Origin: Ensifer adhaerens
Lineage (GTDB): Bacteria > Pseudomonadota > Alphaproteobacteria > Rhizobiales > Rhizobiaceae
DNA: 53,013 bases
Assembly: GCF_001270265.1 (NCBI RefSeq)
Contig: NZ_LGAP01000040.1
Coordinates: forward strand, 1 to 53,013
Direction: 5' to 3'
Of the stretch, positions 7,770 through 26,724 are shown one piece after another (position 1 is the stretch's first letter; the number at the start of each line of letters is the position of its first letter). The position numbers were made by a program, and so were the translations under genes. The notes beneath the pieces were generated by a model. That model was not told the DNA's origin, ran no database searches, and saw only the letters and a program-made list of their open reading frames with translations.

Positions 7770-7817
7770 GCACGCACTCCAATTGGTAAATAAATACGAC
7801 AAGTGATGTAGAATTGT

Positions 7818-7835: not shown

Positions 7836-7884
7836 TTGAAAGGGAATATCCCTGCGGGCGTCATTCCTATCGAAGGTTTTCCCG

Positions 7885-9237: not shown

Positions 9238-9281
9238 CGCGCGTAGCCCATTCTTTCACAATGTCCGACAAGGAGCCGAAC

Positions 9282-10206: not shown

Positions 10207-10707
10207 ATGGATCAGGGGTTCTTTCTTCTGTTCGCTACGGTGGCCGTGGTCGCGGCCCTGATGGTCGTCGTGGCGCGGAATCCGGTTCACAGCGCATTGG
10301 CGTTGATGGCTTGTTTTCTGCAGATCTCCGCAATCTTCATCATGCTCGAGGCGCCGTTGCTCGCCGTCATCCAGATCTTCGTCTATGTCGGCGCGATCAT
10401 GGTGCTGTTCCTATTCGTGATCATGATGATCGATGTGCGGGAAGCCGTCTTGCAGCGGTTCGTGCCGGGCGGTAGCCTTCCAACTCTCGTGCTGCTCGTC
10501 CTGCTTGGGATCGAGATGCTCGTGCTGGTGCTCCGGAGCGACCGTTTTTCCGTCACCGAGCCTGTCGCGACGCGCGGCGGCGATGCGATCAGACAGCTCA
10601 GCACGACGCTTTTTGCCGACTATCTCCTGCCGTTTGAAGCCGCCTCCGTGATCCTGCTGGCGGCCCTGGTCGGCGCCATCGTGCTGGCGCGGAAGGGGTC
10701 GGGGTGA
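10207..10707 (+). CDS. nuoJ: NADH-quinone oxidoreductase subunit J
   Basis: A 166-residue, five-helix membrane subunit of complex I that packs with NuoA, K and H. It shows the family's [10 protein letters not shown] and the conserved TM3 stretch [20 protein letters not shown]. The start at 10207 has GGAGGGG 8 nt upstream. It is the first gene of the rightward nuo operon; its TGA stop overlaps the ATG of the nuoK frame by 1 nt (TGATG). Confidence 0.95.
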
Positions 10708-11008
10708 TGGTTCCGCTCTGGTGGTATATTTTGCTCGGAGTGGCCCTATTCGTGATTGGAGCGGCGGGGGTTTTTCTCTGACGCAAAATTTTTGTTTTGT
10801 TGTTGTCGCTGGAGGTGGTGCTCCACTCGGGCAACATCAACTTCATCGCTTTCGGCCGTCAGTACGACGATTTCCGCGGGCGATTTTTTTGATCTTCGTC
10901 ATCGCAATCACTGCGGCGGAGGGTGCCGTCGCCCTCGGTATCTTGGTCGCCCTTGTGAGGAACAAATCCACCCTCAAGGTCGACGATGTGACCATGATGA
11001 AAGGATAG
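10707..11008 (+). pseudogene. nuoK: NADH-quinone oxidoreductase subunit K, disrupted
   Basis: The frame opens as a normal NuoK ([20 protein letters not shown]) but meets an in-frame TGA at 10779-10781, after GVFL. The same frame then continues as NuoK ([20 protein letters not shown]) until 10881-10890, where a single missing base next to a T7 run shifts it. The remainder ([20 protein letters not shown], ending VDDVTMMKG) lies in the next frame and stops at 11008. Both halves are about full family length (100 residues). The region around the TGA is oddly T-rich, with several replacements of usual residues. NuoK carries conserved membrane glutamates needed for pumping. It is either truly broken or contains sequencing errors. 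Confidence 0.85.
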
Positions 11009-11012
11009 CGGC

Positions 11013-12476
11013 TTGGACCCGGAGTCAACGATCCGGCCGCTGCTTGCCGTCGCCGTTCCGGCTCTGGCGGCCCTGGCGGTTGTCCTTCTGAACAACCGCG
11101 AGGAACTCCGCGACGTCGTCTCGCCGTTGGCCGCGATCGCCCTGTTTGCGGTTGTCGCCTCGATGGCGCCCCCAGTGCTGGCGGGCGGGACCGTCGCTTT
11201 GCGCCTTTTCGAGATACTGCCGGGGATCGACTTCGCTTTCCGCGTTGATGCGCTCGGCATGGTCTTTGCCACAGTCTCGTCACTTCTATGGATCGTGGCC
11301 GCGATCTATTCCATCGGCTACATGCGGCACCTGAACGAGCATGCGCAGACCCGGTTCTTCGCCTGTTTCGCCACCAGCCTCGCAGCGGCCGTCGGGGGCG
11401 CCTTCGCGGCCAATCTGTTTACGCTGGTGATCTTCTACGAGGTGCTCAGCCTCGTTACCTATCCGCTCGTCTACCACCACGAGGACGAAGAGGGATGGAC
11501 GGGCAGCCGCAAGTACCTCGTCTATCTGATGGGCGCGTCGAAAAGCGTGCTACTCGCCGCGCTGGCGCTGACCTACCACATTACGGGGTCGCTGGACTTT
11601 GTGGCGGGGGGGCTGCTGGCGGAGGTAGATGCCTCGGCGGCGCTGCTGACGGTCGTCTATTTCTGCTATCTTTTCGGCTTCGCCAAGGCTGCTGTGATGC
11701 CCATGCACGCATGGCTGCCTGCCGCGATGGTGGCGCCGACGCCAGTCAGCGCGCTCTTGCATGCGGTGGCCGTGGTCAAGATGGGCGTCTTCTGCGTCCT
11801 GCGCGTGGTGTTCCATGTTTTTGGCGTCGAGCTGGTCGGCAAGCTGGGCCTCGGCATAGCCACGGCCTATCTGGTCTCGTTCACCATCCTGATGGCGTCG
11901 GTCTACGCCCTGACCCGGGACGACCTGAAGGCCAGGCTCGCCTATTCGACGGTGAGCCAGCTCTCCTATATCGTGCTGGGTGTGGTTCTGTTGTCGCCGG
12001 CCGCAATGGTCGGCGGGATCATCCACATTGCAGCTCATGCCTTCTCAAAAATCACACTCTTTTTCTGCGCCGGGTCGATCTATTGCGCGTCCGGCAAACG
12101 GAACATCAGCGACATGGCCGGTATCGGCCGCAGGCTGCCCTGGACGATGGGGGCATTCTTTGTCGGCTCGCTCAGCATGATCGGGGTGCCGCCGACCGCG
12201 GGCTTCGTCAGCAAGTGGTATCTGGCGCTGGGCTCTGTGGAGGCGGGGGAGATGGCATTCCTGATCGTGCTCTTAGTGAGTTCGGTCCTGAACGCCGCCT
12301 ACTTCCTGCCGGTCAGTTATGTCGCCTTTTTCGGGACGGAGGTGCAGGAAAGTCCGGCGACGATCCGCGAAATTCCGATGATGACGATCCCGCTGGTCGC
12401 AACCGCCATCTTGTCGATGCTGATGGGCATCTTCCCCGGCTATTTTCTCGCTCTGGCGGACGGAGTGGTCAAATGA
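11013..12476 (+). CDS. extra antiporter-type pump subunit (MrpD/NuoL-like) of the complex I cluster
   Basis: A 487-residue protein with about 14 helices and the proton_antipo_M domain. Key pump residues are visible: Glu143 in the TM5 motif VIFYEVLSL, Lys225 in GFAKAAVMPMHAWLP (His232 after it), Lys256 in AVVKMG, and Lys in GFVSKWYL on TM12. It is closest in style to monovalent cation/H+ antiporter subunit D rather than to NuoL, M or N, all of which have their own counterparts here. It lacks the long NuoL-type C-terminal tail. The likely start is TTG 11013 with AAAGGA 7 nt upstream, just after the nuoK stop. It overlaps the next gene by 4 nt. Confidence 0.88.
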   Translation: MDPESTIRPLLAVAVPALAALAVVLLNNREELRDVVSPLAAIALFAVVASMAPPVLAGGTVALRLFEILPGIDFAFRVDALGMVFATVSSLLWIVAAIYSIGYMRHLNEHAQTRFFACFATSLAAAVGGAFAANLFTLVIFYEVLSLVTYPLVYHHEDEEGWTGSRKYLVYLMGASKSVLLAALALTYHITGSLDFVAGGLLAEVDASAALLTVVYFCYLFGFAKAAVMPMHAWLPAAMVAPTPVSALLHAVAVVKMGVFCVLRVVFHVFGVELVGKLGLGIATAYLVSFTILMASVYALTRDDLKARLAYSTVSQLSYIVLGVVLLSPAAMVGGIIHIAAHAFSKITLFFCAGSIYCASGKRNISDMAGIGRRLPWTMGAFFVGSLSMIGVPPTAGFVSKWYLALGSVEAGEMAFLIVLLVSSVLNAAYFLPVSYVAFFGTEVQESPATIREIPMMTIPLVATAILSMLMGIFPGYFLALADGVVK

Positions 12477-12727
12477 TCAAGCGCGTCGTCGACTTCTTTG
12501 GTGACGAAGAATATGCGAGGCAGCGCCGCCGACTGTTCTATCTGGTGCTCGTCCTCATCGCCATCGCCGACTTTCTGGTTTCTCGCGAACACGCCGAATA
12601 CCTGTGGGACCGTCTGCCTGGCTGGTCTGCCGTCTACGGCTTCGGCTCCTGCGTGCTTTTGATTTTCGTTTCCAAGTTCCTCGGCCATCAGGGTGGGCTC
12701 ATGCGGCGCGAGGACTATTATGACTGA
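12473..12727 (+). CDS. small two-helix membrane protein of the antiporter module
   Basis: An 84-residue protein with a basic start (MIKRVVDFFGDEEYARQRRR), one helix (LFYLVLVLIAIADFLV), a short periplasmic turn (WDRLPGWSAVYGF), a second helix (GSCVLLIFVSKFLG) and the tail MRREDYYD. I recall proteins with this WxxxPGFxAxYG...EDYYD pattern beside paired MrpD-like antiporter genes; no function is known to me. The start overlaps the previous stop (ATGA) and its end overlaps the next ATG by 8 nt, so it is embedded in the pump module. It may be an accessory subunit linking the two antiporter-like proteins. Confidence 0.8.
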   Translation: MIKRVVDFFGDEEYARQRRRLFYLVLVLIAIADFLVSREHAEYLWDRLPGWSAVYGFGSCVLLIFVSKFLGHQGGLMRREDYYD

Positions 12728-14480
12728 TCTCATCCATCCGGGCCTGATCTTCATTCTCGGCGCGCTGCCGATCCCGTTGCTCAGTGGGTCGATCCGCAAG
12801 GCCTATCTGCTGCTGATTCCGGCGCTGGCGATCCTCGCCGTGCTTGCGATGCAGCCGGGCAGCTATGGCGAGATGCAGTTCATCGGGCAGGAAGTGCTGA
12901 TCGCGAAGGTCGACAAGCTGAGCATCGTCTTCGCCACCGTTTTCACCATCATGGCGCTGATCGGAACGGTCTACGCGCTGCACCTGCCTCACGCTGACCA
13001 GCATGTCGCCGCATTCGTCTACGTTGGCAGCGCGCTCGGTGTTGTGTTTGCCGGCGATTACCTGACCCTGTACCTGTTCTGGGAAGGCATGGCATTTGCC
13101 TCTGCCTATCTGGTCTTCGCCCAGGGCGGCCGGCAGGCGGTCGCCGCCGGTTTCCGCTATCTCATGGTCCACATCACCGGTGGGGTGGCCCTGCTCGGCG
13201 GCATCATTCTCCACGGGCTCGCCACCGGCTCGCTGCTCTTCGGCCCGATCGAGGGGGGAATGGGCGTGGGCGCCTATCTGATTCTTGCCGGATTCCTGCT
13301 CAACGCGGCGGTGCCGCCGCTCAACGCCTGGCTGACCGACGCCTATCCGGAGGCGACCGTCACTGGGGCGGTGTTCATGAGCGCTTTCACCACCAAGACC
13401 GCCGTCTACGTGCTGGCACGGGCGTTTCCGGGCACCGAGCTTCTGGTCTGGCTCGGCACCGCGATGGCGCTTTACGGCGTCATCTACGCGGTGCTGGAGA
13501 ACGACTGCCGGCGACTGTTGGCCTATCACATCGTCAGTCAGGTGGGCTACATGGTGGCGGGCGTCGGCATCGGGACCGAGATGGCTGTGAACGGGGCGAC
13601 CGGCCATGCCTTCGCGCATATCCTCTACAAGGCGCTTTTGTTCATGGGTGCCGGGGCGGTAATCTACGTCACCGGCCGTCGCAAGCTCACCGAGCTTGGT
13701 GGGCTCTACAAAACCATGCCGATGACCGTGGCGCTCTATATGGTCGGTGCCTTCGCGATTTCGGCATTCCCATTCTTCTCCGGCTTCGTCACCAAGTCGA
13801 TGGTGGTGGCCGCCGCCGGGCAGGATCATCGGGCGCTGGTGGTGCTGGCGCTGACGATGGCGTCGTCGGGGACGTTCCTGCACACCGGACTGAAGCTCCC
13901 GTACTACATGTTCTTCGGCACGGACCAGAAGCTGGAGGCGCGGGAACCGCCCGGCAACATGCTGGTCGCGATGGGCATGGCAGCGGTGCTCTGCATCGCG
14001 ATCGGGGTGTTCCCCCAGATGCTTTACGCGCTGCTGCCGTATCCGGTCGACTTCGAACCCTACACTGGCGTCCATGTCACCGAGAGCCTTGGCGTGCTGA
14101 TGTTCACCGCGTTGGGGTTCGTGTTGTTCCTCAAGGCGCTCGATCCCGAGAACACGATCAGCCTCGACACTGACTGGTTCTACCGCAAGGGCGCGCGGGT
14201 CTTCATGTGGATCGCTGAAAAACCGCTGGCGCGCTACGAGAAGGCGGTGAGCGACGTGTCCGAGACCGCGGCGCTGCCCTTCCTGCATGGGGCCGCACGG
14301 GCGGGACTGCGAATCGATCTCACCGGCGTGGACGCCATCGTGAACGGCGTCGCCCGCTCGATCCTGCGCGGCGGCGGGGCGCTGCGTCGGCTTCAGACCG
14401 GCGTTGTGACGCACTATGTGCTGGCGATGATTGTCGGTGTGATCGCAGCCGTTGCCGTCTTCGCCGTGGCGTGGCGGTAG
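12720..14480 (+). CDS. nuoL: NuoL-position antiporter-type subunit with MrpD-like core
   Basis: A 586-residue pump subunit. The core resembles cation/H+ antiporter subunit D: Glu122 in LYLFWEGMAF, then NAAVPPLNAWLTDAYPEATVTG, Lys226 in SAFTTKTAVYV, HAFAHILYKALLFMGAG and GFVTKSMVV. The usual TM7 lysine position is Asn195 and the following His is Asn. The C-terminus looks like NuoL: after WFYRKGARV an amphipathic segment of about 70 residues leads to VNGVARSILRGG, RRLQTGVVTHY and a last helix, the pattern of the lateral helix plus TM16. It is the only NuoL candidate in the cluster. The start at 12720 overlaps the small protein gene by 8 nt. Confidence 0.85.
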   Translation: MTDLIHPGLIFILGALPIPLLSGSIRKAYLLLIPALAILAVLAMQPGSYGEMQFIGQEVLIAKVDKLSIVFATVFTIMALIGTVYALHLPHADQHVAAFVYVGSALGVVFAGDYLTLYLFWEGMAFASAYLVFAQGGRQAVAAGFRYLMVHITGGVALLGGIILHGLATGSLLFGPIEGGMGVGAYLILAGFLLNAAVPPLNAWLTDAYPEATVTGAVFMSAFTTKTAVYVLARAFPGTELLVWLGTAMALYGVIYAVLENDCRRLLAYHIVSQVGYMVAGVGIGTEMAVNGATGHAFAHILYKALLFMGAGAVIYVTGRRKLTELGGLYKTMPMTVALYMVGAFAISAFPFFSGFVTKSMVVAAAGQDHRALVVLALTMASSGTFLHTGLKLPYYMFFGTDQKLEAREPPGNMLVAMGMAAVLCIAIGVFPQMLYALLPYPVDFEPYTGVHVTESLGVLMFTALGFVLFLKALDPENTISLDTDWFYRKGARVFMWIAEKPLARYEKAVSDVSETAALPFLHGAARAGLRIDLTGVDAIVNGVARSILRGGGALRRLQTGVVTHYVLAMIVGVIAAVAVFAVAWR

Positions 14481-14488
14481 GAGGTGCG

Positions 14489-15964
14489 ATGGGATTCCCG
14501 CTACTCAGTCTCATCGTATTCACGCCCGTCGCCGGGGCAGCGGTTCTGATGTTTTTGCGCCGTGACGATGCGGTGCGATGGACAGCACTGGGTGTCACCA
14601 TCCTCGACCTCGCTCTCTGCTTAGCCATGCTGGCCAGCTTTGACACCACCACCCATGAGATGCAGTTCATCGAGAAGCGCCCGTGGGTGCCCGCGCTTGG
14701 GATCACATATGCTCTCGGCATCGACGGAATAAGTGCGCTCTTCGTGTTCCTGACTGCGCTTTTGGGCTGGATCTGTGTGCTTGCCTCGTGGGCCGCGATC
14801 GACCGCAAGGTGAAGGAGTTCATGGTCAGCCTACTGGTCATGCAGGCGTTGATGCTTGGCGTGTTCTGCGCGCTCGACCTGTTCTTGTTCTACGTCTTCT
14901 GGGAGGCGATGCTGATCCCGATGTACCTGATCATCGGCGTCTGGGGCGGCGAAGGCCGAGTCTATGCAGCATTCAAGTTCTTCCTCTACACGCTGGCGGG
15001 AAGCCTCCTATTCCTAATCGGTATCATCGTGCTCTATTTCCACGGCGGCGAGACCTTCGACATCCTCGCCCTGACAGCGCAGGATTTGCCGTTCCAGGTC
15101 CAGTCCTGGCTGTTTTTCGCCTTCCTAATCGCCTTCGCGGTCAAGGTCCCCATGGTCCCGGTCCATACCTGGCTGCCGGATGCCCATGTGCAGGCGCCGA
15201 CGGCGGGCAGCATCATCCTGGCGGGAGTGCTCCTGAAAATGGGTGCGTACGGATTCCTGCGGTTCTCGCTGCCGATGCTGCCCGAGGCGTCAGTGCACTA
15301 TTCGACGCTGATGCTGGCACTTTCGGCGCTTGCGATCGTCTATGGCGGGTTGCTTGCGCTGGCGCAGGACGACCTGAAGAAGCTGGTGGCCTATTCGAGC
15401 ATCAGCCACATGGGCTTCGTGACGTTAGGGATTTTTGCGCTGAACCTGCGCGGGCTTGAGGGCGGCATCCTGCAAATGTTCAATCATGGCGTAACGACGG
15501 GCGCGTTGTTCCTGTTCGTCGGTCTGATCTACGAGCGGACACACACTCGCAGCATGGCGGAATATGGCGGGTTGATGAAGGCGGCGCCGGTTTATACCGC
15601 GTTTCTTGCGTTGTTCGTCCTGTCGGCGATGGCGCTGCCGGGAACGAATTCGTTCGTGGGCGAGTTGCTCGTGCTGTCGGGAGGCTTTGCGGCCGACCTG
15701 GCCGCCGGCGCGACCGCCGTTTTGGGCGCATTGCTAGGCGCGGCCTATCTGCTTGGCATGTATCGGAAAGTCGCGCTTGGTCCGGCCAGTGTCGGCGCCC
15801 GGTTCAGCATACGCGATGTGAATGCCCGCGAGATGGCCGCGATCCTGCCCCTGGCCGTCTTCGTGCTTTGGGTCGGGCTCTATCCGAAACCCTTTCTCGA
15901 CATTATCGATGCCTCCGCGAAGCATCTGCTGATGCAGGTGCACGCTAAGGGGAGCGGCCAATGA
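14489..15964 (+). CDS. nuoM: NADH-quinone oxidoreductase subunit M
   Basis: A 491-residue, about 14-helix proton-pumping subunit of complex I. It has the NuoM signature GIDGISALFVFLTALL, Glu in FYVFWEAMLIPMYLIIGVWGG on TM5, Lys in AFAVKVPMVPVHTWLPDAHVQAP on TM7, Lys in VLLKMGAYGFLR on TM8 and the NuoM-specific Glu in NSFVGELLVL on TM12. The start at 14489 has AGGAGG just upstream. It overlaps nuoN by 4 nt (ATGA), so expression is coupled. Confidence 0.96.
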   Translation: MGFPLLSLIVFTPVAGAAVLMFLRRDDAVRWTALGVTILDLALCLAMLASFDTTTHEMQFIEKRPWVPALGITYALGIDGISALFVFLTALLGWICVLASWAAIDRKVKEFMVSLLVMQALMLGVFCALDLFLFYVFWEAMLIPMYLIIGVWGGEGRVYAAFKFFLYTLAGSLLFLIGIIVLYFHGGETFDILALTAQDLPFQVQSWLFFAFLIAFAVKVPMVPVHTWLPDAHVQAPTAGSIILAGVLLKMGAYGFLRFSLPMLPEASVHYSTLMLALSALAIVYGGLLALAQDDLKKLVAYSSISHMGFVTLGIFALNLRGLEGGILQMFNHGVTTGALFLFVGLIYERTHTRSMAEYGGLMKAAPVYTAFLALFVLSAMALPGTNSFVGELLVLSGGFAADLAAGATAVLGALLGAAYLLGMYRKVALGPASVGARFSIRDVNAREMAAILPLAVFVLWVGLYPKPFLDIIDASAKHLLMQVHAKGSGQ

Positions 15965-17400
15965 CCGCCGCCGCGCTCTTCCAGTCGGTGCTAGCGAGCC
16001 TGCCCGAGATCGTGGTGATCACTGGGGCCTGCATCCTGCTGATCTTGGGACAGTTTCTGCGGAAGGGGCAGGAACCTTTCCTTGTCTGGGCTTCCGTCGC
16101 GGTCGTGCTGATTGCCGCCTTTGTGACACTCATGCTGGCAGGCGAGGTGCAGCGGGCCTACACGGGCATGTTCATCGCTGACCGCTTCGCGGTCTTCTTC
16201 AAGTTTGTATTCTACCTAGCCACCGTTCTGACATTCCTGCTTTCGCGGCGATATGCCGAGATCGAAGGGATCGGGAGCAGCGAATACTATGTCCTGCTGC
16301 TTCTTGCGCTTTCGGGAATGATGATCATGGCCTCGGCGACCGACCTCCTGTCGGTCTATGTCGGCGTCGAACTGATGGCGATCTGCACCTATGTGCTGAC
16401 CGGCTTCCTGCGGCGAGAGCAGCGGTCGAACGAAGCGGCGCTGAAATATGTGATCCTTGGCTCGGTCTCGACCGGGATTTTCCTGTACGGCGTTTCGCTG
16501 GTCTACGGGCTCACCGGCACCACACAACTGGACGCGATGGCTGCGGTGGTGACCGGCGATCCGCTCGATCCCGGATTGCTGCTGGCTGTGGTCTTCATCG
16601 TCGCGGGGTTGGTCTTCAAGGTCGGCGCGGTGCCGTTTCACATGTGGGTACCGGACGTCTATGAAGGCGCGCCGACAACGATCACCGCCTTCATGTCGGT
16701 GGGCCCCAAGGCGGCGGGGTTCGCGGTGATCCTGCGGGTGTTCCTCAACCCGCTGTTCGCGACCTCAAACGTTTGGATTATCGTCGCGGTCATTGCGGTG
16801 GTGACGATGGCGCTCGGCAGTTTCGTGGCGCTGGTGCAGGATAATTTCAAGCGCCTGCTGGCCTATTCCAGCATCGCCCATGCCGGGTTCGCCATTTTCG
16901 GCGTGGTGGCCGGCGGTACCGACGGGATCGCCAGCGTGATGCTCTACCTATTGATCTACTCTTTCATGAATCTCGGCATTTTCGGCATCGTCATCATGAT
17001 GCGGAACGGCGATTTCTCGGGCGAGATTATCGAAGACTACGCGGGTTTCGCCAAGTCGCGTCCCGGATTGGCGCTTCTGATGCTGCTCTATCTGTTCTCG
17101 CTGGCCGGTATTCCGCCGACGGCCGGGTTCTTCGCCAAGTTCTACGTCCTGGTCGCGCTCGTCGAGCGCGGTTTCGTCATGCTGGCGGTGATCGCAGTGC
17201 TGCTGAGCGCCGTCGCCGCCTACTTTTACATCCGCATCGTCATGGTGATCTACATGCGGGAGCCGGAGAGGGCGTTCGACCCGGCACTGACGCCCTTGGT
17301 CCGCGCCACGCTCGCCTTCACCGCCGTCGGCACCATCGGCATCGGCCTATTCCCGGCGTGGTTTCTGAGGCTTGCCCAGCACTCGGTGTTTGGGGGCTAA
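15961..17400 (+). CDS. nuoN: NADH-quinone oxidoreductase subunit N
   Basis: A 479-residue pump subunit with the proton_antipo_M domain. Visible are Glu in VYVGVELMAICTYVLTGFLR (TM5), Lys in VFKVGAVPFHMWVPDVYEGAP (TM7), NFKRLLAYSSIAHAGF in the discontinuous-helix region and Lys in PPTAGFFAKFYVL (TM12). Length and motifs are normal for alphaproteobacterial NuoN. A 154-bp gap follows before nuoA, the largest within the rightward nuo set, so a secondary promoter could lie there; I found no convincing consensus. Confidence 0.96.
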   Translation: MTAAALFQSVLASLPEIVVITGACILLILGQFLRKGQEPFLVWASVAVVLIAAFVTLMLAGEVQRAYTGMFIADRFAVFFKFVFYLATVLTFLLSRRYAEIEGIGSSEYYVLLLLALSGMMIMASATDLLSVYVGVELMAICTYVLTGFLRREQRSNEAALKYVILGSVSTGIFLYGVSLVYGLTGTTQLDAMAAVVTGDPLDPGLLLAVVFIVAGLVFKVGAVPFHMWVPDVYEGAPTTITAFMSVGPKAAGFAVILRVFLNPLFATSNVWIIVAVIAVVTMALGSFVALVQDNFKRLLAYSSIAHAGFAIFGVVAGGTDGIASVMLYLLIYSFMNLGIFGIVIMMRNGDFSGEIIEDYAGFAKSRPGLALLMLLYLFSLAGIPPTAGFFAKFYVLVALVERGFVMLAVIAVLLSAVAAYFYIRIVMVIYMREPERAFDPALTPLVRATLAFTAVGTIGIGLFPAWFLRLAQHSVFGG

Positions 17401-17554: not shown

Positions 17555-17920
17555 ATGGTTGCGATGGAGTTCCTCCCGGTTCTTGTCATGGTCGCCGGAA
17601 TTGTTCTGGTGGCGGGGGCGACGCTATTTGTCTCTTCGCTGCTGCGTCCGTCCAATCCCTATCCTGAGAAGAACATGCCCTATGAATGCGGCATGGACCC
17701 GGCAGGCGAGGCCGCCGGAGGCCGCTTCCGGGTGCAGTTCTTTGTTCTCGCAATCCTGTTGGTCGTCTTCGATGTCGAAACGATGTTCCTCTTTCCCTGG
17801 GCCGTCGTGCTGCAAGACATCGGGCTGGTCGGCTATGTCGAGATGTTCGTCTTCATATTGCTGCTTCTTGTGGGCTTCGCCTACGCCTGGCTGAAGGGAG
17901 CGCTGGAATGGGAGGCGTAA
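17555..17920 (+). CDS. nuoA: NADH-quinone oxidoreductase subunit A
   Basis: A 121-residue membrane subunit with three helices. The conserved loop [16 protein letters not shown]...[28 protein letters not shown] carries the Cys of the quinone-site loop and the DVE motif of the family. Two in-frame ATG codons (17555 and 17564) are possible; neither has a strong ribosome site, and the first is used. Its end overlaps nuoB by 13 nt. Confidence 0.95.
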
Positions 17921-18411
17921 ACAATGCGATCCGCGACAGCGTGCTGTTCACCACCGCCGAGAGCGTCATCAACTGGAGCCGAAAATCAGCGCTGTGGCCC
18001 GAGACCTTCGGTATTGCCTGCTGTGCCATCGAGATGATTTCGGCGGGGTGCGCCCGTTACGATCTCGATCGGTTCGGCGTGGTGTTCCGGCCATCACCGC
18101 GCCAGTCCGACGTGATGATTATCGCCGGTACCATAACCCGGAAATTCGCGCCCGTTGTACGCCGGCTCTATGATCAGATGCCGGAACCACGCTGGGTTAT
18201 CGCAATGGGCACCTGCGCTATATCGGGCGGGGTCTACAACACCTACGCCGTGGTGCAGGGGGCGGAGACCTTTGTGCCGGTGGACGTGCATGTTCCCGGC
18301 TGCCCGCCACGGCCCGAGGCGCTGATGCATGGCATCCTCCTGCTTCAGGAGAAGATCAAGAAATCCCGAGCGCTGGCCGGGACGCCTCTGGACCGGATCG
18401 CGGTGCCATGA
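17908..18411 (+). CDS. nuoB: NADH-quinone oxidoreductase subunit B
   Basis: A 167-residue peripheral subunit that holds the terminal [4Fe-4S] cluster N2 next to the quinone site. The four ligands are visible: the tandem Cys38-Cys39 in GIACCAIEM, Cys103 in MGTCAISGG and Cys132 in VPGCPPRPE. The start at 17908 ([10 protein letters not shown]) overlaps the end of nuoA, and its stop overlaps the nuoC start by 4 nt. Confidence 0.96.
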
Positions 18412-18944
18412 GCGTGGAGACACCCCTCAATCTCACCCTGATCACGGAGCACTTCGGCAACGCAATCGACGATCTTGGCTTCGCGCATGGTGTTCACGCC
18501 TTCGCCGCTCCGCCTCAGATGATCGTCGAGCTTTGCCGGTTTCTGAAGGAACACCCGGCGCTGCGGTTCAATTTCCTGTCGGACATCTGCGGGGTCGATC
18601 ATTACCCTGAGGTGCCGCGCTACGAGGCCGTGTACCACCTCTACTCGCTGCCGAACAAATGGCGCGTTCGCATTAAATGCCGCCTCGACGATCCGCCACG
18701 GGTCCCATCGGTGACGGGCGTCTGGCGGACCGCCAATTGGCATGAGCGCGAAGCCTGGGACATGTACGGGATAAGGTTCGAGGGCCACCCCGACTTGCGG
18801 CGGATCTACATGTGGGAAGGCTTCGAGGGCTTCCCTCAGCGCAAGGACTTTCCGCTTCGCGGCTACAAGGACGAGCTGAACCCGTTTGGCGCCGAAGGCC
18901 CGCCGCCGACGCGGCCCGACCTCGCGACCAAGAACATTCCATAA
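18408..18944 (+). CDS. nuoC: NADH-quinone oxidoreductase subunit C (30 kDa subunit)
   Basis: A 178-residue hydrophilic subunit of the Q module. It shows [29 protein letters not shown] and the family hallmark [25 protein letters not shown], followed by PLRGYKDE. It is separate from NuoD, unlike the fused NuoCD of enterobacteria. The start overlaps nuoB by 4 nt. Confidence 0.96.
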
Positions 18945-20722: not shown

Positions 20723-21988
20723 ATGACAGAACCCGTCCTTCTCAGGAACGTGGACATGCCGGATGGCCACCTGCTCGCGACCTACGAGGCCGGCGGCGGC
20801 TACCAGGCACTGGCGAAGGCGGTTCACGAGCACACGCCCGACGAGATCATCGATCTTGTCAAGAAATCCAACCTGCGCGGTCGCGGCGGGGCCGGATTCC
20901 CAACCGGAATGAAATGGAGCTTCGTGCCGAAGCGCGCCGGCAAGCCGAAATACCTGTGCTGCAACGCCGATGAGGGCGAGCCGGGCACATTCAAGGACCG
21001 GATCATCATGGAGCGTGACCCGCACCAGTTGATCGAGGGCATGGCTATCAGTGGCTACGCGATCGGGGCTGAAACCGCCTATGTCTACATCCGCGGGGAA
21101 TACGCGCTGGCGATCCGGCGGCTCGAGCAGGCGCTCGCCGAGGCCCATGCGAAGGGGTATCTGGGAAAGCGGATTCTCGGCTCGGATTTCAATTTCACCG
21201 TGCATATCCATTGCGGCGCCGGTGCCTACATCTGCGGCGAGGAGACAGCGATGCTCGACGCGCTTGAAGGCAAGCGCGCGCAGCCGCGCTTGAAACCGCC
21301 GTTTCCGGCGGTCGAAGGGCTCTACGCCAGCCCGACCGTCATCAACAACGTCGAAACATTGGCCTGCGTTCCGCATATCGTGGCGCGGGGGCCAGACTGG
21401 TTCCGCGGCATCGGCCCGGACAAAAGCCCCGGTCCGAAGCTCTACTGCCTCAGCGGCCAGGTGCGCAAACCGGGCCTTTACGAGCTGCCGATGGGCATAC
21501 CACTACGCGAACTGGTCGAGGACCACGCCGGCGGGCCGCTGCCGGGGCGCAAGATCAAGGCCGTGATCCCCGGCGGGGTCTCGGCACCGCTGATCCCGGA
21601 ACGTGGGCTGGACGTTGGAATGGACTTCGACTCGCTGGCCGCCGCCGGTTCGATGCTCGGTTCGGCCGGGGTAATCGTAATCGACGACTCGACTTGCATG
21701 GTCAAGGTCGCCACCCGGATCATCGAATTCTTCCACCATGAGTCCTGCGGCAAGTGCACCCCGTGCCGCGAAGGGCTCAATTGGGTTGTAAAAGTGCTGC
21801 GCCGGGTCGAGGCGGGGCAGGGGGGGCCGGGCGATCTGGAACAGCTGGAGGCGCTCTGCAAGGGCATTTTCGGCAACACGTTCTGCGCTCTGGGCGATGG
21901 TGCAGCCATGGGGCTGCGGGCGGCACTCACGCATTTCGAGCATGAATTCGTCGCCCATATCGAGGAGCGGCGGTGCCCGTTTCACTGA
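20723..21988 (+). CDS. nuoF: NADH-quinone oxidoreductase subunit F (51 kDa, FMN/NADH-binding)
   Basis: A 421-residue catalytic subunit that oxidises NADH. The sequence shows the glycine-rich NADH loop GRGGAGFPTGMKW, the FMN site CNADEGEPGTFKDR, GAYICGEETAMLDALEG and the N3 [4Fe-4S] ligands in SCGKCTPCREG plus a later Cys in FGNTFCALGD. Length is normal. The start at 20723 has GGGAG 9 nt upstream. Confidence 0.97.
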   Translation: MTEPVLLRNVDMPDGHLLATYEAGGGYQALAKAVHEHTPDEIIDLVKKSNLRGRGGAGFPTGMKWSFVPKRAGKPKYLCCNADEGEPGTFKDRIIMERDPHQLIEGMAISGYAIGAETAYVYIRGEYALAIRRLEQALAEAHAKGYLGKRILGSDFNFTVHIHCGAGAYICGEETAMLDALEGKRAQPRLKPPFPAVEGLYASPTVINNVETLACVPHIVARGPDWFRGIGPDKSPGPKLYCLSGQVRKPGLYELPMGIPLRELVEDHAGGPLPGRKIKAVIPGGVSAPLIPERGLDVGMDFDSLAAAGSMLGSAGVIVIDDSTCMVKVATRIIEFFHHESCGKCTPCREGLNWVVKVLRRVEAGQGGPGDLEQLEALCKGIFGNTFCALGDGAAMGLRAALTHFEHEFVAHIEERRCPFH

Positions 21989-22018: not shown

Positions 22019-24637
22019 ATGGTTAGCATCACGATAAACGAACAAACGCTGGAAGTGGAGGCGGGCTCTACCGTGCTGCAGGCTGCCGAGCGTTTGGGGA
22101 TCGACATCCCGACCTTCTGCTATCTGAAGCGGCTGCCGGCGCTGGCCTCCTGCCGCATGTGCCTGGTGGAGATCGAGGGCCAGCGGCGACTGCAGCCCGC
22201 ATGCGCGACCGCGGTCATTGACGGCATGGTGGTGCGGGCGAGCACGCCGCTGATCGAGGAAACACGCTCTTCCATGCTCGACATGCTGCTCGCCAACCAT
22301 CCCCTCGACTGCCCGATCTGCGACAAGGGCGGCGAGTGCGAGCTGCAGGACCTGGTGATGGCGTACGGGCCCCGCGAAAGCCGGTTCCGTGATGCCAAAC
22401 GTGTGTTCCACTCCAAGGACATCCGCCTCAGCCCGGTCATCATCATGAATGTCAACCGCTGTATCCAGTGCCAGCGCTGCGTCCGGATGTGCGAGGAAGT
22501 GGTCGGCGCTGTCGCCTTGGGCACTGTCGAAAAAGGCATGGATACCGCCGTGACCGGCTTTGAAGGCAGTCTCGCGAGTTGCGACCAATGCGGTAATTGC
22601 GTCGAGGTCTGTCCGGTCGGCGCGCTGATGAGCTTTCCTTATCGCTACAAGGCGCGGCCGTGGGATCTGGCCGAGACCGACACAGTCTGCCCGCATTGCG
22701 GCACTGGCTGCCAGCTGACCGTCGGCACGCGCAAAGGCGAGTTCATGCGGGTCCGTTCGAAACAGGAGCATGGGGTCAACCGGGAAACGCTCTGCGTGCG
22801 GGGACGCTTCGGCCTCGATTTCGTCGGGAGCCGGGACCGGATCAAACGGCCGATGGTCCGTCGTGATGGCGCCCTCGTTCCGGTTTCCTGGGAAGAAGCG
22901 GCGGACTATCTGCGGCGGCGGCTCTCGGCCGTCGAAGGAAAGGTTGCGGGCGGGCTGGCCTCGCCGCGCCTTCCCAACGAGGTTCTTTATCAGTTCCAGA
23001 AAGTGATGCGGACGGTGTTCCGCACCAACAACATAGACTGCGCGTCTCGCTGGTCCACACCTTTCGATGCGCTCGGCCCATTGGTGGCGAGCTTCTACAC
23101 GCGCGCGCCGCTGGAAGACGTGATCGGCAACGACTGCGTGCTGGTCGTCGGTGGCAACGTGACCGAGGAAAACCCGGTCACCGAATATCTGCTGCGGGAC
23201 TGCGCGCGGCGACGGCAGACCGGCTTGCTCATGCTCTCGGCGCGGCCATCCCGTCTGGACGCCGATGCCCGGACGGTCGTTCGCGTTCCGCCGGGTGGTG
23301 AGGCGGCGGGCCTTGCCGCAGTGGTCGCCTGTCTCGTTGCGCCGGCCAGTCAGGCCTTGCCGGGCGATGTTCCAGTGGATATCGGCACGCCAACCGGCAA
23401 GCTGGGAGCAACCGATGGTGACGGGCCGGACCGCGTAGCCGCTGCGCTCTTGGACAGCGGGAGCGTCACCGTTCTTGTCAGCGTCGATCTCCTGAGGTTG
23501 CCACTGGCCCGCGCGGCATTACAGCAGATCAACAAGCTGCTGCGGATTCTTCGTGCCCTCGGCAAGGATCTGGCGATGCAATTCCTCTTTGATCGTGCCA
23601 ACCAGCTGGGCGCCTGGGACATGGGGGTTCTACCGACGGCGCTGCCGGGACTGCGTGCCGTCGCCGATGATGCTGCGCGCGCAACTTTCGAAAGGGCCTG
23701 GGGCGCCGGGATCCCGTCTGAACCGGGCGCAGACTTCGAGACCATGCTGGAGCTCTGCGACGGCGGGCGGATGGGGGCGCTCTATATCGTTGGAAGCGAC
23801 CCTCTGATGAGCTATCCCGATCGAAAACTCGTGACGCGGGCGCTTGGCGCCGTCGATCTCCTGATCGTGCAGGACGCATTCCTCACGGATACGGTGGGGC
23901 TTGCCGATGTGGTGCTGCCCGCAGCCAGTTACGGCGAAGAATCCGGCACCTTCACCAACAATGAGGGCCGGACCCAGAAAGTCTGCAAGTTCCGCGAAGC
24001 CGTCTTCGAGGCACGGGGCAATCTGGCGATCCTCGACTTCGTCGCGGCGCTTCGAAACCAGCAGTTGCGGTCGTCAACGCAAGGCGAAATCTTCGACGAG
24101 ATGACCCAATTGGTTCCGGCCTATCAGGGGCTGACGCTGGACGGGCTTGGTACTGACGGAGCATTTACCAGATCGGTCCCGACACCACCGGCTGATGAGT
24201 TTCTCGCGTCGCCGCCTGCCGTTCCGAATGCCGGCGACCGGCTCATGCTGATCACCGGCAACTGCCTGTTCCACAACGGATATCTTTCCGAACGCTCCGC
24301 GATCCTGAATACGGTTGCGGCCGACCCATATGTCGAGATGAGCGCGCGCGATGCCGCGCAGCTTGGTCTTTCGGATCGCGATCACGTGGTCGTGCGATCC
24401 ACCCAGGGTGAACTGAGAGCGCAGCTCAAGGTCAACAGGCACTTTCCCAGGGGGCTCGTGTTCGTGCCGGAAAACTACAGAGACCTGCGTCTCAACAGCC
24501 TGATGCGGCAGGGCGAATACCCTTGTCCGGTGGAGGTTGAAAAGGTGCACGCTGCCTTCGATGCGGCTGCGGGAGCCGCGGCGGCACCTGAAAATCCCGG
24601 CCGAGGCATTGCCGAGCTTCCGGGCAGTCCACCCTAA
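22019..24637 (+). CDS. nuoG: NADH-quinone oxidoreductase subunit G (long, molybdopterin-oxidoreductase-like)
   Basis: An 872-residue subunit, longer than the about 690 residues of the usual alphaproteobacterial NuoG. The N-terminal [2Fe-2S] domain has CYLKRL...SCRMCLVE...PACAT, then HPLDCPICDKGGECELQD with the His-Cys3 cluster, and two 4Fe-4S motifs (CIQCQRCVRMC, CDQCGNCVEVCPVG). CPHCGTGC near residue 222 begins a complete molybdopterin-oxidoreductase-like domain with a C-terminal dinucleotide-binding domain (LMLITGNCLFHNGYLSERS). The CxxCxxxC motif suggests the extra cluster N7. It is the last gene of the rightward operon and meets the CBS gene tail to tail. Confidence 0.95.
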   Translation: MVSITINEQTLEVEAGSTVLQAAERLGIDIPTFCYLKRLPALASCRMCLVEIEGQRRLQPACATAVIDGMVVRASTPLIEETRSSMLDMLLANHPLDCPICDKGGECELQDLVMAYGPRESRFRDAKRVFHSKDIRLSPVIIMNVNRCIQCQRCVRMCEEVVGAVALGTVEKGMDTAVTGFEGSLASCDQCGNCVEVCPVGALMSFPYRYKARPWDLAETDTVCPHCGTGCQLTVGTRKGEFMRVRSKQEHGVNRETLCVRGRFGLDFVGSRDRIKRPMVRRDGALVPVSWEEAADYLRRRLSAVEGKVAGGLASPRLPNEVLYQFQKVMRTVFRTNNIDCASRWSTPFDALGPLVASFYTRAPLEDVIGNDCVLVVGGNVTEENPVTEYLLRDCARRRQTGLLMLSARPSRLDADARTVVRVPPGGEAAGLAAVVACLVAPASQALPGDVPVDIGTPTGKLGATDGDGPDRVAAALLDSGSVTVLVSVDLLRLPLARAALQQINKLLRILRALGKDLAMQFLFDRANQLGAWDMGVLPTALPGLRAVADDAARATFERAWGAGIPSEPGADFETMLELCDGGRMGALYIVGSDPLMSYPDRKLVTRALGAVDLLIVQDAFLTDTVGLADVVLPAASYGEESGTFTNNEGRTQKVCKFREAVFEARGNLAILDFVAALRNQQLRSSTQGEIFDEMTQLVPAYQGLTLDGLGTDGAFTRSVPTPPADEFLASPPAVPNAGDRLMLITGNCLFHNGYLSERSAILNTVAADPYVEMSARDAAQLGLSDRDHVVVRSTQGELRAQLKVNRHFPRGLVFVPENYRDLRLNSLMRQGEYPCPVEVEKVHAAFDAAAGAAAAPENPGRGIAELPGSPP

Positions 24638-24659: not shown

Positions 24660-25100
24660 TCAGTGATAGGCGGTCCCGGCGATGTATTCGTGCATCGCCT
24701 GTTCGTTGCGCAGCGCCTCTTCGAGGCGATGCTTGACCACGTCGCCGATGCTCACCACGCCGACAGGAGCGCCGCCATCCATGACCAGCACATGGCGTGT
24801 GCGCCAATTGGTCATGATTGCCATCACAAAGGGCAGAAAATCCTCTGTCGAGCACGTCGCCACATTGCGGTTCATGATGTCTGCGACCCGCATAGTGGGC
24901 GCGTCGAGTCCGTATTCGGCCACCGCATTGCAGCAGTCCCGCTCTGACAGCGTGCCCAGGCATTCCCCGGGCGAACGGCTGACAACCACGAAGCCGATGT
25001 TGTTCTCCCGAAACAGCCGCAGGACTTCTACCATCGTCTGATCCGGCGTAACCGAGATGAGTTCGGGAGACTTGGTTTTCAAGATTTGGCAGACATGCAT
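24660..25100 (-). CDS. two-CBS-domain protein next to nuoI
   Basis: A 146-residue protein made almost entirely of a Bateman module. The first CBS domain runs about residues 10-65 (ELISVTPDQTMVEVLRLFRENNIGFVVV...LGTLSERD) and the second about 75-130 (ADIMNRNVATCSTEDFL...RHVLVMDGGAPVGVVSIGDVV). Such modules bind adenosine nucleotides (AMP, ATP, NAD or SAM) and switch partners. It has no DNA-binding or enzyme domain. It follows nuoI on the - strand after 45 nt and is probably in the nuoH-nuoI operon, so it may sense adenylate or NAD state for this complex I. That role is inferred. Confidence 0.85.
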   Translation of the reverse strand: MHVCQILKTKSPELISVTPDQTMVEVLRLFRENNIGFVVVSRSPGECLGTLSERDCCNAVAEYGLDAPTMRVADIMNRNVATCSTEDFLPFVMAIMTNWRTRHVLVMDGGAPVGVVSIGDVVKHRLEEALRNEQAMHEYIAGTAYH

Positions 25101-25145: not shown

Positions 25146-25712
25146 TCACGTTTGCCGGATATTTCGCCACCAGTTGTACCCCTGCAGCTCGCTCGCCTCG
25201 ACCAGAACGTCCTTTTCGGTGCTCAGGCGCGCCGCGACTACAGCGCCGCCGGTCGCAGCCTTGCCCGGCTTGCCGAGCAGGTCGTCGCGCCCGATGATCA
25301 GATCACGCGAGGAAAAACTCGAGAACTCATACTGCTGGCCAAGCGCGATCGCATCCGCCGGGCAAGCATCCTCGCACAGCCCGCAGAACAGGCACCGGGC
25401 CGTGTCGATTTCAAATTTTGCCGGGCGACGGTTGCCCTTCTCGTCCTCGTAGGGGATGACTTCGATGCAGTCGCAGGGACAGATCCGCGCGCAGAGTTCG
25501 CAGGCCACGCATTTGATCTCGCCCTCCTCGTCGCGCTTTAAGAAGTGGTGCCCGCGGTAACGCGGATAAGGCAACCATTTTTCCTTGTCCGGATATTGCA
25601 TGGTCACGGATCTGGAGAACATGTAGCCGAACGTCAGAGCCAAAGCTTTCCCCAGATCGGCGAAGAACGCCCAACCGATCCATGTTCCAACTCTGTCTCC
25701 TGCGTGCGACAT
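25146..25712 (-). CDS. nuoI: NADH-quinone oxidoreductase subunit I
   Basis: A 188-residue ferredoxin-like subunit that carries clusters N6a and N6b between NuoG and NuoB. Two 4Fe-4S motifs are visible: CVACELCARICPCDC and CLFCGLCEDACPADA. The N-terminal amphipathic helix (IGWAFFADLGKALALTFGYMF) anchors it to the membrane arm. It is 10 nt downstream of nuoH, opposite in direction to nuoJ-nuoG. Confidence 0.96.
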   Translation of the reverse strand: MSHAGDRVGTWIGWAFFADLGKALALTFGYMFSRSVTMQYPDKEKWLPYPRYRGHHFLKRDEEGEIKCVACELCARICPCDCIEVIPYEDEKGNRRPAKFEIDTARCLFCGLCEDACPADAIALGQQYEFSSFSSRDLIIGRDDLLGKPGKAATGGAVVAARLSTEKDVLVEASELQGYNWWRNIRQT

Positions 25713-25722
25713 CGCCGCCCCG

Positions 25723-26724
25723 CTACGGAGCCGCTGTGGCCCCTAAAAGAACACCTGTAATAATTATGTTCGCCATCGACAGAGGAAGCAAGACTTTCCA
25801 TCCGATCGCCATCAGCTGGTCGTAGCGATAGCGGGGGAAAGTGAAGCGGAACCATATGAATACATAGATGAAGAACGCGACCTTGAGCGCAAACCAGAGA
25901 AGCGGCGGCAAGGGAAGCAGCACGCCGTTCCAGCCGCCGAAGAACAGGATCACCACCAGGACCGACACCAGCAGCATAATGGCATATTCGCTGACCATGA
26001 AGAACGCAAAGCGGATACCGCTGTACTCGGTGTGGAACCCTGCCCCCAGATCGCCTTCCGCTTCCGCCAGGTCAAAGGGAATGCGTTGCGCTTCGGCCAA
26101 TCCCGCGACGAAGAACACGAAGAAGCCGACCGGTTGGTAAACGATGTTCCAGACATCGGCTTGCGCCCGCACGATCTCGAGCAGGCTCATGGACTGCGCC
26201 AGCATGACCACGCCGATGACCGCGAACCCCATCGGGATCTCGTAACTGATCATCTGCGCGCAGGTTCTGAGGCTGCCCAGGACTGCGTATTTGCTGTTGG
26301 CGGCCCAGCCGCCGAAGATGACGCCATAGACCTCGATCCCGATCACCGCGAAGACGAAAAGGAGCGCCACATTCATGTTGGAGACGTAGAGCGTAATTTC
26401 GGCGCCGAGGACCGAGACGGTTTCGCCGAAGGGGACCGCGACAAACACCACGAAGGGTGGGGCAAGCGCCAGGATCGGCGCCAGTTTGAAGAGGAAGCGA
26501 TCGGCGTCGGCCGGGATATGGTCCTCTTTGGTTAACAGCTTGATCCCGTCCGCTACCGGCTGCAGCAGCCCGTGCCAACCCACACGCATTGGCCCCATAC
26601 GCTGCTGGATGTGGCCGGCGATCTTGCGTTCCAGCCAGGTCAGCGGCAAGGGCAGCAGTAGCAGGATCGCAATCAGAAACGCGACCTTGAAGACGATCAG
26701 GCCAAGAGCGACGATAAGTTCCAT
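25723..26724 (-). CDS. nuoH: NADH-quinone oxidoreductase subunit H
   Basis: A 333-residue, eight-helix subunit at the junction of the two arms, lining the quinone entry. It shows PLTWLERKIAGHIQQRMGPMRVGWHGLLQPVADGIKLLTKED, the GWAANSKYAVLGSLR loop, EAQRIPFDLAEAEGDLGAGFHTEYSG and the C-terminal FIWFRFTFPRYRYDQLM. It is first of the leftward nuoH-nuoI-CBS set; no strong ribosome site is seen in front of ATG 26724. Confidence 0.96.
   Translation of the reverse strand: MELIVALGLIVFKVAFLIAILLLLPLPLTWLERKIAGHIQQRMGPMRVGWHGLLQPVADGIKLLTKEDHIPADADRFLFKLAPILALAPPFVVFVAVPFGETVSVLGAEITLYVSNMNVALLFVFAVIGIEVYGVIFGGWAANSKYAVLGSLRTCAQMISYEIPMGFAVIGVVMLAQSMSLLEIVRAQADVWNIVYQPVGFFVFFVAGLAEAQRIPFDLAEAEGDLGAGFHTEYSGIRFAFFMVSEYAIMLLVSVLVVILFFGGWNGVLLPLPPLLWFALKVAFFIYVFIWFRFTFPRYRYDQLMAIGWKVLLPLSMANIIITGVLLGATAAP

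What the first reader, a model, noticed from the sequence alone, without database searches (positions are those of the whole stretch)
11013..17400. Complex I cluster with four antiporter-type pump subunits
The genes at 11013, 12720, 14489 and 15961 all have the proton_antipo_M pattern with the TM5 Glu and TM12 charge. Standard complex I has three such subunits (L, M, N). Variants with extra pump subunits have been described in the literature and are proposed to pump more protons per NADH or to drive reverse electron flow. The extra subunit here is MrpD-like rather than a duplicated NuoM, which may make it a different kind.
Basis: partly seen in the sequence, partly recalled or inferred. Interest (0 to 1): 0.75.

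Follow-up and report, generated by a model that had tools for sequence, protein, structure and literature searches.

The report
Complex I with Mrp-derived extra pump
This rhizobial gene cluster encodes a respiratory complex I in which the usual end pump has been replaced by two pumps and a small protein of the kind found in sodium/proton antiporters; the variant was already described as "green complex I", but the sequence suggests how the swapped-in part was fitted.

Summary
In detail: 11013, 12720, 14489 and 15961 are four antiporter-type genes in a complex I cluster, J-K-D1-hyp83-D2-M-N-A-B-C-D-E-F-G plus convergent H-I-CBS. There is no NuoL: D1 (11013) and D2 (12720) are both Mrp-type. This is the published "green complex I" of rhizobia, nearly identical to annotated plasmid copies (D2 97.6%), so it is not a new kind. 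New detail: D1 with D2 (and mostly hyp83) also occurs in Mrp-type operons outside nuo clusters (116 loci), and green D2 nests among those. Its last ~50-60 residues, however, match canonical NuoL ends (30-37 bits in 19 of 19 rows; stand-alone D2 at most 7.5), and its C-terminal stretch is ~20-25 residues longer (102-105; NuoL 76-86; stand-alone D2 71-87, three rows 90 in another alignment). That fits a fourth antiporter subunit in one arm. Caveat: D2 has Asn in place of the TM7 Lys (79 of 79 relatives), so a fifth proton per NADH is not assured; D1 keeps all four key residues. The window's nuoK carries a stop and a frameshift, absent from 88 of 88 other loci: sequencing error or recent inactivation.

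The parts
10207..10707 (+). nuoJ
   Evidence: PF00499 132 bits (read from 10177); homologue annotated NuoJ in E. canadensis
10707..11009 (+). nuoK, disrupted in this contig: in-frame stop at codon 25 and a one-base deletion near codon 55-58
   Evidence: stop-free over at least 90 residues in 88 of 88 other green loci examined
11013..12476 (+). D1: MrpD-like antiporter subunit (487 aa), full set of pump residues E143, K225, K256, K401
   Evidence: PF00361, NCBIfam PRK08375.1-1 839 bits, tree, residues
12473..12727 (+). hyp83: conserved 84-residue protein, helical, probably two membrane helices (inferred); no Pfam or NCBIfam family
   Evidence: low-confidence model; profile hit in 9 of 9 green and 104 of 116 stand-alone loci
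12720..14480 (+). D2: Mrp-type antiporter subunit in NuoL's place (586 aa); E122, N195 (TM7 Lys lost), K226, K359; NuoL-like lengthened C-terminus
14280..14477 (+). D2 residues 521-586: envelope of the match to canonical NuoL C-termini (aligned core 537-583)
14489..15964 (+). nuoM
   Evidence: NDH_I_M 634 bits; tree with own and E. coli NuoM
15961..17400 (+). nuoN
   Evidence: NDH_I_N 514 bits; tree
17555..17920 (+). nuoA
   Evidence: PF00507 126 bits
17908..18411 (+). nuoB
   Evidence: reading frame within the 17686-18411 ORF; synteny with annotated nuoB
18408..18944 (+). nuoC
   Evidence: PF00329 165 bits
18974..20188 (+). nuoD
   Evidence: PF00346 392 bits
20206..20718 (+). nuoE
   Evidence: nuoE_fam 183 bits (read from 20197); start by synteny
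20723..21988 (+). nuoF
   Evidence: ORF; synteny with annotated nuoF
22019..24637 (+). nuoG with two ferredoxin-type C-x2-C-x2-C-x3-C motifs (residues 148, 188)
   Evidence: NuoG 481 bits; motifs
24660..25100 (-). CBS-domain protein, conserved neighbour
   Evidence: ORF; homologue annotated CBS domain-containing protein; not scanned with Pfam itself
25146..25712 (-). nuoI
   Evidence: 4Fe-4S domains; annotated NuoI in homologues
25723..26724 (-). nuoH
   Evidence: PF00146 398 bits

Best explanation
It is a green complex I: an NADH:quinone oxidoreductase whose membrane arm ends in an Mrp-type cassette instead of NuoL. Proposed order along the arm: H/J/K/A - N - M - D1 - D2, with the small hyp83 protein near the D1/D2 junction. 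The cassette D1-hyp83-D2 is shared with a stand-alone Mrp-type operon (in the one scanned with Pfam: MnhE-MrpF-MnhG-MbhD/E-MnhB-MrpC-D0-D1-hyp83-D2); in the complex, D0 is absent and NuoM/NuoN stand in its place. D2 looks like a chimaera: an Mrp-type core carrying a NuoL-type end of the lateral helix and final membrane helix, joined so that the C-terminal stretch is about 20-25 residues longer, enough for the lateral helix to reach along one more subunit. Shown by sequence: gene content, phylogeny, the NuoL-like tail, the added length, the residue sets. Inferred: the subunit order, one continuous arm with four antiporter subunits, and the graft as the cause of the length. Likely function: redox-driven ion pumping with M, N and D1 each having a full residue set, and D2 an altered pump (TM5 Glu, TM8 and TM12 Lys, no TM7 Lys) that anchors the lateral helix. 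Four to five H+ per NADH, or reverse electron flow at high proton-motive force in symbiosis or low oxygen, are inferences.
For: Family scores and missing NuoL. Same gene order in annotated plasmids of Ensifer, Phyllobacterium and Rhizobium and by reading in S. meliloti pSymA. 80 of the 80 named loci kept (of 183 relatives) have D1, hyp83 and D2 next to other nuo genes. D1 relatives without a nuo cluster in 13 of 13 plus 103 of 107 further loci; operon content of one by Pfam. Tree: green D1 with stand-alone D1 100/100, green D2 with L071 stand-alone D2 100/99, M and N with canonical M and N. C-terminal stretch 102-105 in 19 of 19 green rows (17 distinct genes) and 115 of 115 database green proteins, against 76-86 in 31 of 31 NuoL and 71-87 in 103 of 107 stand-alone D2, the other 4 cut short. 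NuoL tail profile: green 29.6-37.5 bits in 19 of 19 rows, stand-alone at most 7.5 (103), shuffles at most 9.9; 79 named green D2 18.9-39.1, other antiporter proteins at most 6.5. Residues conserved in 79 of 79 D2 and 80 of 80 D1. dN/dS 0.05-0.28 in nine genes.
Against: nuoK is broken in this contig, so this very copy may not work. D2 lacks the TM7 Lys, so the number of working pumps is open. No close solved structure was found by sequence (best matches are other antiporter-family chains), and the AlphaFold model has block pLDDT 41-54 from residue 471 on, so the long lateral helix is not shown structurally. In the tree green D1 is sister to the stand-alone D1 group (its support 87/82), not nested in it, so the direction of transfer rests on D2 alone. 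Similarity of the tails by convergence is not excluded. The stand-alone profile also scores green D2 ends at 16-23 bits, above shuffles (at most 8.2), as expected of a join but also of a shared anchor.
Confidence: 0.8

Rival explanations
1. Same four-antiporter architecture, but D2 does not pump: it is a structural end cap that holds the lateral helix, so the complex still moves about four H+ per NADH. D1 takes over the NuoL pumping role.
For: TM7 Lys replaced by Asn in 79 of 79 named green D2 and 43 of 43 rows of alignment A2, while D1 keeps E, K, K, K in 80 of 80.
Against: TM5 Glu, TM8 Lys and TM12 Lys of D2 are invariant in the same set, and the Asn is also present in 120 of 120 database D2 relatives closest to L071 (their gene context was not seen), which may well transport ions.
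Confidence: 0.35
2. The complex is non-functional in this strain: nuoK is inactivated and the operon is at an early stage of decay.
For: In-frame stop at codon 25 plus a one-base deletion in nuoK; a canonical nuo operon exists elsewhere in the genome.
Against: No uncompensated indel against E. canadensis in the other operon genes (a two-base gap pair near the end of nuoF cancels out) and open frames for them; dN/dS 0.05-0.28 in nine of them. The changes in nuoK are clustered and rich in changes to T (9 of 19), which looks as much like a local sequencing or assembly error in a 99-contig draft as decay.
Confidence: 0.2
3. 11013 is an unrelated Mrp gene caught in the cluster; the complex has the usual three pumps with D2 as NuoL.
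Against: D1, hyp83 and D2 are kept together inside nuo clusters in 80 of the 80 named loci kept, from alpha-, beta-, gamma- and deltaproteobacteria by record title; D1 has all pump residues in 80 of 80; D2's C-terminal stretch is longer by about one subunit's worth.
Confidence: 0.05
4. The cassette brings its cation along: the distal part moves Na+ (or K+) rather than H+, making a mixed-ion complex I.
For: D1 and D2 are most like Mrp-type antiporter subunits.
Against: The authors of the Mrp structure place the Na+ path around the MrpA C-terminal domain and MrpF, apart from the MrpA-N/MrpD proton paths (PMC7419157, passages); no MnhB, MnhE, MrpF or MnhG was found among the products scanned or in the annotated homologues.
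Confidence: 0.08

Closest known systems
[quoted passage not shown] not held here; known through passages of PMC9040806, PMC7415380, PMC4967309)
   Same: Two MrpD-like subunits in place of NuoL, rearranged gene order, NuoG with an additional 4Fe4S cluster, second operon beside the standard one
   Different: No difference in gene content was seen; this copy has a disrupted nuoK. The NuoL-like tail, the length comparison, the shared stand-alone cassette and the beta/gamma/delta hosts were not in the passages read
Nitrospira 2M complex I (Chadwick et al. 2018; not held; via PMC9040806 passages)
   Same: Four antiporter subunits; an insertion in the lateral helix of the distal subunit
   Different: There the extra subunit is a second NuoM and NuoL is kept; here one NuoM and no NuoL
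Complex_I_3 of Ca. Manganitrophus (PMC9040806 passages)
   Same: Two MrpD-like subunits closest to the rhizobial ones
   Different: Five pumps (also two NuoM) and a further 26-residue insertion in the MrpD2 lateral helix
Stand-alone Mrp-type operon with three MrpD-like genes in Alphaproteobacteria
   Same: D1, hyp83 (in most) and D2 homologues in the same order
   Different: The one scanned has MnhB, E, F, G, MbhD/E, MrpC and D0; no nuo cluster; shorter D2 C-terminus without NuoL-like tail
S. meliloti pSymA nuo cluster and Mesorhizobium ICEMspSymAA22 nuo cluster (PMC8627217, one passage)
   Same: pSymA has the window's arrangement, and the ICE cluster has the arrangement of pSymA
   Different: Replicon of the present 53-kb contig is unknown

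Membership tests
Green complex I | Two MrpD-like subunits replace NuoL | tested here: met
   definition from PMC9040806 passage
Green complex I | Rearranged nuo gene order | tested here: met
   J-K-D1-hyp83-D2-M-N-A-B-C-D-E-F-G with convergent H-I-CBS, same as three annotated plasmids; 'peculiar rearrangement' in PMC7415380 passage, which does not spell the order out
Green complex I | Additional 4Fe4S cluster in NuoG | tested here: met
   two C-x2-C-x2-C-x3-C motifs (148, 188); none of that pattern in the genome's canonical NuoG or E. coli NuoG; feature from a PMC4967309 figure legend
Green complex I | Coexists with a standard NUO14 operon | tested here: met
   canonical nuo operon with L, M, N at G000:C1
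Green complex I | Complete set of intact core subunits | tested here: inconclusive
   the others read as open frames, nuoK disrupted, error or decay
Green complex I | Upregulated in symbiosis | not testable with these tools
   expression claim from PMC7415380 passage
2M complex I | Second NuoM with NuoL retained | tested here: not met
   of the four antiporter products one is over the NDH_I_M cutoff and none over NDH_I_L
Canonical NUO14 complex I | A NuoL over the NDH_I_L cutoff (407.5 bits) | tested here: not met
   D1 199.5, D2 141.4
Mrp cation/proton antiporter | MrpB, E, F, G subunits in the operon | tested here: not met
   no MnhB, MNHE, MrpF or MnhG hits among the products scanned; annotated homologues list only nuo genes, D1, hyp, D2 and CBS in the cluster
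Mrp cation/proton antiporter | MrpD-type subunits by sequence | tested here: met

The most novel reading that the evidence does not exclude
Green complex I arose by swapping NuoL for a three-gene cassette (D1-hyp83-D2) from a stand-alone Mrp-type operon, while the end of NuoL (last part of the lateral helix and the final membrane helix) was kept and grafted onto D2. The join lengthened the lateral helix by one subunit's worth, and hyp83 became an undescribed extra subunit of the complex. Lateral-helix length would then be a sequence ruler for the number of antiporter subunits in any complex I.
Probability: 0.55. Interest if true: 0.55.

Novelty: already known. Interest (0 to 1): 0.35.

Why it matters
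Complexes with more antiporter subunits are a natural test of how redox energy is shared among pumps. Green complex I is found on plasmids of many tractable rhizobia, so H+/2e- of three- and four-subunit arms could be compared in one strain. The apparent graft and the added length give concrete predictions for a cryo-EM structure, and the conserved TM7 Lys to Asn change in D2 makes the question of whether every antiporter subunit pumps directly testable.

Tried and rejected
Searched for NuoL in the cluster: none over the cutoff. Considered R. sphaeroides complex IE as the closest relative: in PMC4859585 the terms 'antiporter', 'NuoL' and 'Mrp' do not occur in the main text. The primary papers by Degli Esposti (two) and Chadwick were not held, so I cannot say whether they already report the NuoL-like tail or the length. 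Among the papers listed or read in passages none was seen to report the NuoL-like tail of D2; only listings, abstract starts and passages were seen. The region search for the D2 C-terminus listed the best 120 of 430, close green D2 proteins, and said nothing about NuoL. The hyp83 model is too poor to interpret (pLDDT 59.6). Foldseek with the D2 model only confirms the antiporter fold, best MrpA chains.

Errors of mine and their repair: one search counted 5 of 10 same-genus rows on the wrong strand; one search replaces it. In one search three stand-alone rows (L153, L160, L162) gave 90 residues where one search gave at most 87, so those counts depend on the alignment. The nuoK line was computed one base out of frame and is discarded; one search replaces it. 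The 88-of-88 count could have run across stops; one search repeats it on stop-free frames with the same result. Alignment A1 held one D1 row among D2 rows and was not used further. The strict motif count failed on 64 of 110 stand-alone rows and was replaced by the alignment-based count. In one search the single NuoL row was misaligned (111) and is not used. NuoM numbering is one too high.
Full report
What is there. The plus-strand run is nuoJ, nuoK, D1 (11013-12476), an 84-residue gene hyp83 (12473-12727), D2 (12720-14480), nuoM, nuoN, nuoA-B-C-D-E-F-G (to 24637); nuoH, nuoI and a CBS-domain gene follow on the minus strand (B, F and CBS named by synteny). All four antiporter products are over the PF00361 cutoff. 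NuoM and NuoN are canonical (634 and 514 bits over cutoffs of 263.8 and 332.6). D1 and D2 are not NuoL: they pass two MrpD-type NCBIfam cutoffs and stay far below NDH_I_L. The genome has a separate canonical nuo operon (C1) and other loci with antiporter domains on C48, C22 and C14; 13 PF00361 matches in all (contents by blastp).

It is a known variant. tblastn of D2 finds 106 plasmid records (E up to 1e-60), 100 with at least 80% coverage; 99 of 106 are at 80% identity or more, the best 97.6% in Ensifer canadensis pT173d, and 7 are haloarchaeal below 60%. Three annotated homologues have the same gene order and S. meliloti pSymA reads the same. [quoted passage not shown] PMC7415380 (passages) says about 70 Alphaproteobacteria, mostly Rhizobiaceae, have it next to NUO14; PMC4967309 (figure legend) gives NuoG an additional 4Fe4S cluster, which the window's NuoG fits (two C-x2-C-x2-C-x3-C motifs; none of that pattern in the two canonical NuoG proteins compared). 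PMC8627217 (one passage) finds the pSymA arrangement on a Mesorhizobium symbiosis element.

Distribution. In 61 genomes from the neighbourhood, D2 matches at E up to 1e-60 in 24: 11 of 16 of the same genus (own included) at 82% or more, and 13 of 45 others at about 45-53%. In those 13 a third MrpD-like gene D0, D1, hyp83 where detected and D2 occur, and no nuo genes in the stretches fetched; in L054 D2 lies about 3.5 kb from D1. In 385 genomes of the class, D1 matches in 105 at E up to 1e-90. Of the 107 matches other than the window's own, fetched are in nuo clusters (L059-L062) and 103 are not. Some of these stretches end at contig ends; L153 has canonical-type nuoA-B-C in the opposite direction nearby, L107 a weak NuoG match (23%) and L159 a NuoK-like match (38%, possibly MrpC). 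Over the 116 stand-alone loci D0 was found in 115 and D2 in 110; D0 was absent in 9 of 9 green loci. hyp83 is found by profile in 104 of the 116 and in 9 of 9 green loci. The one stand-alone operon scanned with Pfam is MNHE-MrpF-MnhG-MbhD/E-MnhB-MrpC-D0-D1-hyp83-D2. A named scan with D1 of L062 found 183 relatives, of which the best 80 were kept; all 80 show D1, hyp83 and D2 beside other nuo genes. Besides rhizobia their titles include Ruegeria, Leisingera, Parasedimentitalea, Pelagibius, Moritella, Azoarcus and a deltaproteobacterial MAG. In Moritella, Azoarcus and others H-I-J-K-D1-hyp83-D2-M-N is contiguous; H and I are not next to J in rhizobia and Ruegeria within the stretches seen, and are on the other strand in L210.

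Phylogeny. A tree of 78 rows (13 of the 116 stand-alone loci, 5 green loci plus the window, canonical, Mrp and Hyf proteins; 540 columns, IQ-TREE, drawn with midpoint root) joins green D1 with stand-alone D1 (100/100) and nests green D2 inside stand-alone D2, next to L071 (100/99). Green M and N join the genome's own and E. coli M and N. Against a clean story: green D1 is sister to, not inside, the stand-alone D1 set (87/82); three stand-alone D2 rows (L153, L163, L165) have long branches, two of which meet; ten rows depart in letter make-up.

The C-terminus of D2. From a conserved Asp (D485) to the end there are 102-105 residues in 19 of 19 green rows (17 distinct genes; L060 was dropped because its D2 is cut by the contig end) and in 115 of 115 database green proteins of at least 560 residues; 76-86 in 31 of 31 canonical NuoL (E. 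coli and the best 30 of 47 genomes with a match); and 71-87 in 103 of 107 stand-alone D2 of at least 500 residues, 4 being cut off. Three of these (L153, L160, L162) counted 90 in an earlier alignment. Among 79 named green D2 (L202 too short), 76 have 100-105 and three have 110, 121 and 189 through run-on tails; 7 of the 79 are also in the first set. In 120 database D2 proteins closest to L071, 117 have 76-80, others 69, 74 and 101; the 101 is a run-on tail. A profile of the 31 NuoL ends gives green D2 29.6-37.5 bits (19 rows), stand-alone D2 at most 7.5 (103) and shuffled sequences at most 9.9; the 79 named green D2 score 18.9-39.1 while the MrpA protein that was listed, Hyf, M, N and D1 proteins score at most 6.5 (the second MrpA gave no listed score). 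The match covers residues 537-583 in the window and 527-584 in L061 and L062, whereas residues 482-517 of L061 and L062 match the stand-alone profile; the window's own row scores 14.0 bits with that profile, its range fell outside the printed output. The best solved relatives of this tail are NuoL of Mycobacterium and Paracoccus (8e9g_L, 8qby_L; E 0.02 and 0.07, weak). I read this as a graft of a NuoL end onto an Mrp core, which also explains the added length; twenty-five residues of helix are about 37 angstrom, roughly one antiporter subunit (that width is recalled). The Nitrospira 2M NuoL and the Manganitrophus MrpD2 have comparable insertions (passages).

Residues. At the positions of E. 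coli NuoM E144, K234, K265, E407 the window has D1 E, K, K, K; D2 E, N, K, K; M E, K, K, E; N E, K, (K one column off), K (the choice of positions is recalled, the role of such residues is in PMC7419157 passages). In 80 of 80 named D1 the set is E, K, K, K and in 79 of 79 named D2 it is E, N, K, K. Of 13 stand-alone D2 in the tree set, 6 have Asn, 6 Lys and 1 Ser at the TM7 position. So D1 looks like a full pump, while green D2 lacks the TM7 Lys in every copy examined.

nuoK. The window's copy has a TGA at codon 25 and a one-base deletion about 100 bases later, with 19 substitutions in the first 55 codons against E. canadensis (11 codons nonsynonymous, stop included, 6 synonymous; 9 of 19 changes are to T). 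A stop-free frame covers at least 90 of 100 NuoK residues in 88 of 88 other green loci (a few are the same gene fetched twice, such as L062/L196). Nine other genes compared with E. canadensis have dN/dS 0.05-0.28. Error and recent loss cannot be told apart here.

Structure. The AlphaFold model of D2 (43 rows) has mean pLDDT 75.2 but block means of 41-54 from residue 471 on, so it does not test the helix; Foldseek ranks MrpA chains first. hyp83 is modelled as helices at pLDDT 59.6 only.

Verdict. What the sequence adds, as far as the passages read allow comparison, is the shared stand-alone cassette, the NuoL-like lengthened tail of D2, the conserved loss of its TM7 Lys, and hosts beyond rhizobia.

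Noticed in passing
window 10707-11009: nuoK carries an in-frame stop and a one-base deletion with a cluster of T-rich substitutions; stop-free in the 88 other green loci examined.
   Followed up: yes
L044-L056 and 103 of L059-L165: A stand-alone Mrp-type operon with three MrpD-like genes and (mostly) hyp83 is common in Alphaproteobacteria; D2 relatives close to L071 also carry gammaproteobacterial names (Thioalkalivibrio, Wenzhouxiangella, Natronospira), whose gene context was not seen. No paper on it was looked for.
   Followed up: partly
L211 (Azoarcus), L237/L238/L244 (Moritella), L245 (deltaproteobacterial MAG), L202/L221/L265: Green complex I clusters in records titled as beta-, gamma- and deltaproteobacteria, with H-I-J-K-D1-hyp83-D2-M-N contiguous in several.
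   Followed up: partly
window 24660-25100: A CBS-domain gene accompanies the green cluster in the three annotated homologues and lies between nuoI and nuoJ in nine named loci, many of them Rhodobacterales; function unknown.
   Followed up: no
plasmid records: Seven haloarchaeal plasmids (Natronorubrum and others) encode D2 relatives below 60% identity.
   Followed up: no
L043 (G000:C14:94000-106000): The genome also has a cluster with HyfB-, HyfF-, NuoD- and NuoB-like proteins, perhaps a group 4 hydrogenase-like complex.
   Followed up: no
window 6858-9680: LysR regulator, MFS transporter and NTF2-like genes upstream of the cluster are shared with Ensifer canadensis pT173d but are not annotated there in Phyllobacterium zundukense or R. 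lentis.
   Followed up: no
L269: D2 and nuoH each appear as two pieces in a Rhodobacteraceae MAG, probably frameshifts.
   Followed up: no
L262 (Rhizobium freirei): A minus-strand ORF whose best match is E. coli NuoL lies next to nuoJ of the green cluster.
   Followed up: no
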